Assembly: GCF_001748385.1 (NCBI RefSeq)
Contig: NZ_BCLI01000001.1
Span: 186,001-250,000 of the forward strand
DNA: 64,000 nucleotides
Direction of reading: 5' to 3'
Source: Vulcanisaeta thermophila
Lineage (GTDB): Archaea > Thermoproteota > Thermoprotei > Thermoproteales > Thermocladiaceae
The notes beneath the pieces are model-generated. The model had not been told where the DNA came from, did not search any database, and worked only from the letters and a program-made list of their open reading frames with translations. Made by a program: the position numbers and the translations under genes. Of this stretch, positions 31,298 through 32,822 are shown in pieces. Each line of letters starts with the position of its first letter. Position 1 is the first letter of the stretch.

Positions 31298-31828
31298 TTA
31301 CCTAATGACCATGTTCCTCCTCAACTTGAGGAGGCACCTGGGGCAGAAGCCTGGTCCCTTTGTGTCTGTGTCGTGCACGGTATTGCTAAAGTGCATGACA
31401 CAGGTTGGGTCTAGGCAGTGATCCAGTCCAAAGGTGTGCCCCAACTCGTGTAGTATTTCCTTAAGTACCCTACTGTGGAATAAACTCACGTCATTGGTCA
31501 CTAACCTCTGTGTGAAGATGATTGCCAATTTACCGTTCATCCTGGCCACCCCGAATACGAAGTTCATACCCTCAACGTACCCATCACCATCAATCACAAG
31601 CACAATCCTATCATAATCGCCGTAGTCCCTAACCCTGGGCTCCAGGTAATCAAGTAACTCATCAGCCTTCACCTGCCCCCTACGTGGATCCCTAAACTGG
31701 GACTTGAGCCCCTCGAAATCCGTCTTCCTAACCTCAACCTGCGGTACACCATCAAGGTACTTACTCACAAGGCCCGTGATCTCAGGGGGTAGGTCAATCT
31801 CCGTTAGTATGAGTATCCTAAGCACCAC
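31298..31828 (-). CDS. amzA: Archaemetzincin metallopeptidase
   Basis: A 176-residue archaemetzincin. HELGHTFGLDH near residue 122 is the zinc-binding HExxHxxGxxH, immediately followed by CLDPTCVMHFSN with the Met-turn. A second zinc site is formed by the CxxxxC pair and the late CPRC (near 165). These peptidases are soluble, and their natural substrates are unknown. GTG 31828 lies 27 bases after the minus-strand TATA-like GTTTAATA. A candidate C/D box RNA ends just upstream. Confidence 0.93.
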   Translation of the reverse strand: MVLRILILTEIDLPPEITGLVSKYLDGVPQVEVRKTDFEGLKSQFRDPRRGQVKADELLDYLEPRVRDYGDYDRIVLVIDGDGYVEGMNFVFGVARMNGKLAIIFTQRLVTNDVSLFHSRVLKEILHELGHTFGLDHCLDPTCVMHFSNTVHDTDTKGPGFCPRCLLKLRRNMVIR

Positions 31829-31863: not shown

Positions 31864-31928
31864 CATTATTCAGGATGGGCGCAAGTTCCTCATTGAATCA
31901 GTCACGCTCGTGCATCATCACCAATAAT
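31864..31928 (-). ncRNA. Candidate C/D box guide RNA
   Basis: On the minus strand the order is C box GTGATGA (31915-31921), a 13-nt guide (31902-31914), D' CTGA (31898-31901), a 4-nt spacer, C' ATGAGGA (31887-31893, one mismatch to RTGATGA), a 13-nt guide (31874-31886) and D CTGA (31870-31873). ATTAT/ATAAT flanks can form a terminal stem. The TATA-like TTTTTAAA (31946-31953) predicts transcription start near 31923. It probably guides 2'-O-methylation by fibrillarin; targets not determined. Confidence 0.72.
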
Positions 31929-31945: not shown

Positions 31946-31953
31946 TTTAAAAA
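31946..31953. promoter_or_regulatory. TATA-like box between two divergent RNA candidates
   Basis: TTTAAAAA, centred near 31949.5. Counting 26 bases each way places starts near 31923 on the minus strand (5' end of the C/D RNA) and near 31976 on the plus strand (5' end of the structured RNA). No coding sequence begins at either position. Confidence 0.5.
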
Positions 31954-32072: not shown

Positions 32073-32822
32073 TCATGGTTGTTTACTGAGCAGTTTTAGG
32101 GCCTTAACCGCCTCACTAACCACCTTACCAACCACTATAACTGATGGGTTCTCTGCAGTGACCGCTCCCTGTGCCAGCTCCCCGAGGTTTGTTATTGTTA
32201 GTTTTGGGTTCTCCATGTATGCCCTGGTCACTATGGCCACTGGGGTCTCCCTGTCTAGCCCTCCATCTATTAATTCCGAGGCTATCTCCCTAATTCGAGA
32301 TGCCCCCATGAGTATTACTATCGTGTCCACGGCGTTGGCAAGCCTCCTGAAGTCCACGAACCTCCTCCCCTTCCTGGGGTCCTCGGTCCCCGTGACTATG
32401 GCCACGGAGCTAGCCACCCCACGGAGTACGGGCGGTATTAGGAATGCCTCGGGCGCGGCTATGGCTGATGTAACCCCTGGTATGACCTCGCAGGGAATTC
32501 CCTCACTAAGCACTGCGAGGCACTCCTCAAAGCCCCTACCAAAGAGGAATGGGTCTCCACCGTGTAGCCTAACCACCCTCTTCCCCTCCCTAGCCCTCTC
32601 TATCATCAGCCTTATTATTTCCTCCTCCTCCATGGTGTGCCTCCCTGGCTCCTTACCCGCAAATACAAGCTCAGCGCCATTCCTGGCGTGGCTTAGTATG
32701 TTCATGGGTATTAACCTATCGTAAATTATGACGTCGCTCTCCTCAATAGCCCTTAAGCATTTAATGGTGACCAAGTTCTCATCCCCTGGTCCTGTCCCTG
32801 CTATTACCACGCTACCTACCAT
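32073..32822 (-). CDS. cobA: Uroporphyrinogen-III C-methyltransferase
   Basis: A 249-residue SUMT that methylates uroporphyrinogen III at C-2 and C-7 to precorrin-2, the branch to siroheme and cobalamin. VVIAGTGPGDENLVTIKCLR near residue 5, YDRLIP near 35 and the GGDPFLFGRG glycine loop near 93 bind AdoMet and substrate. VVGKVV ends it. hemD, cbiB and a chelatase-like gene elsewhere in the window belong to the same pathway. A CTTATTAAG box near 32849 lies about 27 bases from the ATG. Confidence 0.95.
   Translation of the reverse strand: MVGSVVIAGTGPGDENLVTIKCLRAIEESDVIIYDRLIPMNILSHARNGAELVFAGKEPGRHTMEEEEIIRLMIERAREGKRVVRLHGGDPFLFGRGFEECLAVLSEGIPCEVIPGVTSAIAAPEAFLIPPVLRGVASSVAIVTGTEDPRKGRRFVDFRRLANAVDTIVILMGASRIREIASELIDGGLDRETPVAIVTRAYMENPKLTITNLGELAQGAVTAENPSVIVVGKVVSEAVKALKLLSKQP

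What the first reader, a model, noticed from the sequence alone, without database searches (positions are those of the whole stretch)
31864..31928. C/D box guide RNA between cobA and amzA
A C box (GTGATGA), 13-nt guide, CTGA, 4-nt spacer, C' box with one mismatch, 13-nt guide and CTGA follow one another on the minus strand, with a possible ATTAT/ATAAT terminal stem. TTTTTAAA lies 26 bases upstream of the 5' end. Nothing codes here.
Basis: partly seen in the sequence, partly recalled or inferred. Interest (0 to 1): 0.75.

Follow-up and report, generated by a model that had tools for sequence, protein, structure and literature searches.

The report
Archaeal guide RNA for ribosome methylation
This is a small RNA gene of a heat-loving archaeon that most likely directs methyl groups to two neighbouring spots in the large ribosomal RNA; it is a real, apparently unlisted member of a well-known class of RNAs.

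Summary
The minus strand at 31921-31870 carries a complete archaeal C/D box sRNA in the gap between cobA and amzA; 0 of 200 shuffled windows gave such an arrangement at the same stringency. It is conserved: 14 of 25 genomes of the family hold a clear homologue (E<=1e-11), 10 of 12 in its own genus (Vulcanisaeta, by named records) and 4 of 5 in a second genus. In all ten own-genus genomes it lies between cobA and amzA. A TATA-like box upstream is conserved in 12 of 14 members. The D' guide makes 10 Watson-Crick pairs (N+5 site G2536, E. coli C2395) and the D guide 9 pairs with one G-U (N+5 site G2505), 31 nt apart: a classical double guide. These sites rank first in 16S+23S for 14 of 14 D' guides and 12 of 14 D guides of the family. 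Fibrillarin and Nop5 genes are present side by side. One species (G018) keeps the locus but has lost boxes C and C'. No Rfam family matches. Expression and methylation remain unshown. New member of a known kind; modest interest.

The parts
31946..31953 (-). TATA-like box TTTTTAAA, probable promoter of the sRNA
   Evidence: a TTTAA/TTAAA-type hexamer starting 28-35 nt before the C box in 12 of 14 family members, 0 of 14 in a control stretch further upstream
31865..31928 (-). Predicted mature C/D box sRNA with its 5-bp terminal stem (ATTAT 31928-31924 / ATAAT 31869-31865); stem not conserved
   Evidence: homologues
31915..31921 (-). C box GTGATGA
   Evidence: TGATGA in 14 of 14 members
31902..31914 (-). 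D' guide TGCACGAGCGTGA; pairs with 23S 2534-2543 (10 Watson-Crick pairs), predicted 2'-O-methyl site G2536
31898..31901 (-). D' box CTGA (CGGA in most relatives of the genus)
31887..31893 (-). C' box ATGAGGA
31874..31886 (-). D guide ACTTGCGCCCATC; pairs with 23S 2504-2512 (9 pairs, one G-U), predicted 2'-O-methyl site G2505
31870..31873 (-). D box CTGA
   Evidence: CTGA in 14 of 14
32073..32822 (-). cobA (uroporphyrinogen-III C-methyltransferase), upstream neighbour; context only
31298..31828 (-). amzA (archaemetzincin, peptidase M54), downstream neighbour; context only

Best explanation
The feature is an archaeal C/D box sRNA of the double-guide type, probably with its own promoter. The transcript would fold so that boxes C/D make a k-turn and boxes C'/D' a k-loop, bind L7Ae, Nop5 and fibrillarin, and pair its two guides with 23S rRNA. 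The D' guide would direct 2'-O-methylation of G2536 (E. coli C2395) and the D guide of G2505 (about E. coli 2364), by the N+5 rule, during ribosome assembly. Shown here: box anatomy, conservation, synteny, promoter-like box, complementarity, presence of fibrillarin and Nop5 genes. Inferred: transcription, RNP assembly, and the methylation itself.
For: Anatomy absent from 200 shuffles at the strict setting. Homologues at E<=1e-11 in 14 of 25 family genomes with both guides recognisable. Flanked by cobA and amzA in all 10 own-genus genomes that have it. Promoter-like box in 12 of 14. Both guides match 23S 31 nt apart with a Watson-Crick pair at N+5; shuffled guides did as well in 12 of 3000 trials. 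The two 23S sites rank first in own 16S+23S for 14 of 14 D' guides and 12 of 14 D guides, including second-genus D guides (such as ATCTGCGCCCTTT) that differ from the own guide yet pair better with the same site. The target stretches are the same in the six genus-mates' 23S that were aligned. Fibrillarin PF01269 (338.5 bits) and Nop5 PF01798 (236.2 bits) lie next to each other in the genome. Four of the eight sub-threshold Rfam hits in the 801-base stretch are to archaeal C/D sRNAs lying on this element: sR4, sR5, sR7, sR1.
Against: No expression or methylation data. The own D guide match alone is not significant (a run of 9 or more in 1453 of 3000 shuffles); the own D' match alone is marginal (10 or more in 185 of 3000). 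With mismatches allowed, one tRNA locus (L048) scored slightly above the 23S site for the D guide, 25 against 24, and several sites tied at 24. In G023 the D guide has drifted and ranks 98th at the site. The terminal stem is not conserved. The guide nucleotide two before D', G in 13 of 14 members plus own, that is 14 of 14, faces A2533 and does not pair. The second genus's 23S stretch was found in none of its 5 assemblies, so its guides were tested only against the own 23S. L7Ae was not searched.
Confidence: 0.93

Rival explanations
1. C/D box sRNA whose main role is chaperoning: the two guides hold the two 23S stretches open during folding, with methylation secondary or absent.
For: The targets are 31 nt apart and both lie in helix-forming strands of the local fold; double guides as chaperones are proposed in PMC4644070 (abstract) and PMC7994747 (abstract).
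Against: A Watson-Crick pair sits at N+5 for both own guides, as expected for productive methylation. Nothing here separates the two roles.
Confidence: 0.2
2. Leader element of the amzA mRNA: a k-turn bound by L7Ae that regulates amzA.
For: Located just upstream of amzA in 10 of 10 own-genus genomes; L7Ae-mediated translational regulation in archaea is suggested in PMC5539422 (title and start of abstract seen).
Against: Both guides are conserved, which a k-turn leader would not need; the second genus keeps the sRNA without cobA or amzA in the held flanks; a promoter-like box of its own is conserved.
Confidence: 0.04
3. Chance arrangement of box-like words.
For: GTGATGA and CTGA are short words; loosened criteria do occur by chance in 3 of 200 shuffles.
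Against: 0 of 200 shuffles at the strict setting; homologues in 14 of 25 family genomes.
Confidence: 0.01
4. Orphan or tRNA-directed guide rather than an rRNA guide.
For: With mismatches allowed, tRNA locus L048 scores 25 against 24 for the 23S site with the D guide; for the D' guide the antisense strand of a tRNA locus (L072) ties with 23S at 27.
Against: The L072 match is on the strand opposite to the tRNA; the L048 match has a mismatch inside the pairing run. The 23S sites are 31 nt apart and hold for nearly all family variants.
Confidence: 0.05

Closest known systems
Archaeal C/D box sRNAs, double-guide type (Sulfolobus, Pyrobaculum, Thermoproteus and others; PMC4644070, PMC7994747)
   Same: RTGATGA and CTGA boxes, two guides, short D'-C' spacer, two targets within 100 nt of one rRNA, N+5 site.
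   Different: 13-nt guides (the review gives 10-12 nt); this guide pair was not found by the family model at E below 0.0189 in the 20 genomes of other families of the order.
Rfam sR4, sR5, sR7, sR1 (archaeal C/D sRNAs)
   Same: Same box order; they align across the whole element at E 2-4.4.
   Different: Scores of 11-13.9 bits against gathering scores of 37-50; guides differ; not members.
Eukaryotic C/D box snoRNAs
   Same: Same boxes and chemistry (PMC7994747, section 3).
   Different: The archaeal form is compact, with C' and D' boxes better kept (PMC7994747, section 8).

Membership tests
Archaeal C/D box sRNA | C box RTGATGA and D box CTGA at the two ends, about 50-70 nt | tested here: met
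   D box CTGA and TGATGA in 14 of 14
Archaeal C/D box sRNA | Internal D' and C' boxes with a short spacer | tested here: met
   CTGA, TTCA, ATGAGGA; D' is CTGA or CGGA in 13 of 14 members, AGAA in G024
Archaeal C/D box sRNA | Guides complementary to a stable RNA with a Watson-Crick pair at N+5 | tested here: met
   10 and 9 pairs in 23S, 31 nt apart; family-wide ranks
Archaeal C/D box sRNA | Evolutionary conservation as a unit | tested here: met
   14 of 25 family genomes at E<=1e-11
Archaeal C/D box sRNA | Terminal stem at the C/D k-turn | tested here: inconclusive
   5-bp ATTAT/ATAAT in own; 6 pairs (with G-U) in one relative; 3 or fewer in 12 of 14
Archaeal C/D box sRNA | Methylation proteins in the genome | tested here: met
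   Fibrillarin and Nop5; L7Ae not searched
Archaeal C/D box sRNA | Expressed small RNA bound by L7Ae, Nop5, fibrillarin | not testable with these tools
   Needs RNA-seq or pull-down
Archaeal C/D box sRNA | 2'-O-methyl at the predicted nucleotides | not testable with these tools
   Needs RiboMeth-seq or primer extension
Rfam sR1, sR4, sR5, sR7 | Score above the family's gathering cut-off | tested here: not met

The most novel reading that the evidence does not exclude
A double-guide sRNA family shared by Vulcanisaeta and a sister genus places two ribose methyls in a hairpin and the neighbouring helix of 23S, next to the nucleotide equivalent to E. coli C2394 (E site, recalled), outside the domain V hotspots named for archaea (helices 90-93). 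It is being lost in one Vulcanisaeta species and is not found where the 23S target hairpin has changed, so guide and target can be watched turning over together.
Probability: 0.35. Interest if true: 0.4.

Novelty: new member of a known kind. Interest (0 to 1): 0.25.

Why it matters
It adds a guide family, with both targets, in a genus for which two literature searches made here listed no C/D sRNA paper by title. It also gives a small clean case of guide loss (G018) and of guide-target turnover between sister genera. It does not change the understanding of the class.

Tried and rejected
Rfam at gathering threshold over the whole window gave 0 matches; a permissive search of 801 bases gave 8 sub-threshold hits, four of them archaeal C/D sRNAs on this element. 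ARAGORN found no tRNA in the window. A plasmid search with the locus gave no match. tRNA targets: all 46 tRNA loci of the genome, both strands and unspliced, were scanned and the ten best sites per guide listed; no tRNA locus was in both lists with pairing over the N+5 region that I judged as good as the 23S pair. A first 23S alignment was wrong because four loci from the minus strand had not been turned; one search replaces it.

A pattern for homologues in 14 genomes of other genera or with weak hits gave 13 places; three are this sRNA (G014, G023, G010); the other ten were viewed and lack the following boxes. Of 11 records in the named search, L111, an Elusimicrobia MAG, was not examined and was left out of the alignment. 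Weak model hits in four genomes of genus g2 (L144, L145, L148, L155) are C/D-like RNAs with other guides, not this family. Model hits L143, L151, L153 and L156 were not viewed. A scan of viral contigs with amzA found one distant relative and led nowhere.

Full report
Observation. The minus strand of the window reads, from 31928 to 31865, ATTAT-TG-GTGATGA-TGCACGAGCGTGA-CTGA-TTCA-ATGAGGA-ACTTGCGCCCATC-CTGA-ATAAT. Every element of the finding is there at the stated place. The gap lies between cobA (32073-32822) and amzA (31298-31828), both on the minus strand, identified by NCBIfam and Pfam; no ORF of 60 aa or more covers the element. A scan for exact C, D' and D boxes and a C' with at most one mismatch finds two places in the 64-kb window, this one and another at 41326-41275, and none in 200 dinucleotide shuffles.

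Conservation. A 72-base search of the 25 genomes of the family gave clear matches in the same genus and one other. A sequence-only model built from 14 members, searched in 45 genomes of the order, gave E<=1e-11 in 14: 10 of 12 in the own genus g1, 4 of 5 in g3, 0 of 5 in g2, 0 of 3 in g4, and 0 of 20 in other families. Those 14 are the genomes whose sequences made the model, so their scores hold by construction; the information is that no further genome matched strongly. The independent evidence of homology is the DNA search, with the own sequence alone as query. Of 11 named records with the D' guide and its boxes, six are labelled Vulcanisaeta, four are Thermoproteota or Thermoproteales MAGs, and one is an Elusimicrobia MAG that I did not examine. 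In all 10 own-genus genomes with the sRNA, cobA and amzA matches flank it; in the g3 loci neither gene appears in the held flanks, and three g3 loci share another neighbourhood. A TATA-like hexamer starts 28-35 nt before the C box in 12 of 14 members, with 0 of 14 in a control stretch.

Targets. The genome's single 16S and 23S genes were located. In 23S, the D' guide pairs with 2534-2543 by ten Watson-Crick pairs and the D guide with 2504-2512 by nine pairs, one of them G-U; the N+5 nucleotides are G2536 and G2505. G2536 aligns with E. coli C2395; G2505 falls near E. coli 2364, beside an indel, so that number is approximate. With shuffled guides, a D' run of 10 or more occurs in 185 of 3000, a D run of 9 or more in 1453 of 3000, and a pair as good within 100 nt in 12 of 3000. 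Single matches are therefore weak and the pair is the evidence. A stronger test is the family: scored against the own 16S and 23S, the D' site ranks first (ties counted as first) for 14 of 14 members and the D site for 12 of 14; the exceptions are G023's drifted guide (rank 98) and g3 L108 (rank 2). The members are related, so these are not 14 independent tests. The g3 D guides differ from the own guide at several positions but pair over a longer run with the same site. They were tested against the own 23S, since no g3 assembly showed the 23S stretch. When tRNAs are included and mismatches allowed, one tRNA locus scores 25 against 24 for the D site.

Turnover. G018, a single-contig genome with the same 23S target, keeps an sRNA remnant between cobA and amzA with its D guide still matching, but box C has become unrecognisable (AATGTA in its place), box C' is altered and the D' guide has a substitution. 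Several separate changes make a sequencing slip unlikely. In g2 and g4 genomes with a 23S stretch (G001, G002, G012) the D-guide target hairpin has changed and the sRNA is not found. That is a correlation over few lineages.

Mechanism. From established work on C/D sRNPs (PMC7994747: sections 3 and 8, and part 1 of section 4, read; PMC4644070: abstract, parts 1 and 2 of section 4, and section 16, read), the RNA would bind L7Ae, Nop5 and fibrillarin and have the nucleotide opposite the fifth guide position before each D box methylated. PMC4644070 asks for nine consecutive Watson-Crick pairs, relaxed somewhat for double guides with targets within 100 nt; the D' match passes, and the D match, with one G-U, passes under the relaxed rule. 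Fibrillarin and Nop5 genes are present and adjacent. The local fold puts the D target in the 3' strand of a hairpin and the D' target at the start of the next helix, so pairing must precede or compete with local folding; a chaperone role is possible and untested. The E-site role of E. coli C2394 is recalled.

Literature. Searches for Vulcanisaeta with sRNA, box and methylation and with snoRNA listed no paper on Vulcanisaeta C/D sRNAs by title; searches covered Pyrobaculum guides and archaeal ribosome structures. The Pyrobaculum family catalogue (Lui et al. 2018) is known to me only through the review, and supplementary target tables could not be opened, so I cannot say whether these 23S positions are listed for other archaea. 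The review names helices 90-93 as the domain V hotspots.

Verdict. A real archaeal C/D box double-guide sRNA, apparently unlisted as a family, ordinary in kind.

Noticed in passing
window 41326-41275, minus strand: A second C/D box sRNA (GTGATGA...CTGA...TGATGA...CTGA) in an intergenic gap. Its guides have 10-nt runs with N+5 at own 16S 1022 and 1329, and it is found in 11 of 12 own-genus genomes and 0 of 13 others of the family.
   Followed up: partly
L141 (G018): Decayed copy of the sRNA in its usual place: boxes C and C' lost while the D guide still fits 23S.
   Followed up: partly
L144, L145, L148, L155: Another C/D-like sRNA in four loci of genus g2 genomes, guides around GAGCCCTCGTGG and TATTCACGTACCGG; targets not sought.
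   Followed up: no
L028 (G019), L152 (G023): A further C/D-like RNA beginning GTGATGATGCTCGAGAGG, apparently shared by two genomes of the genus.
   Followed up: no
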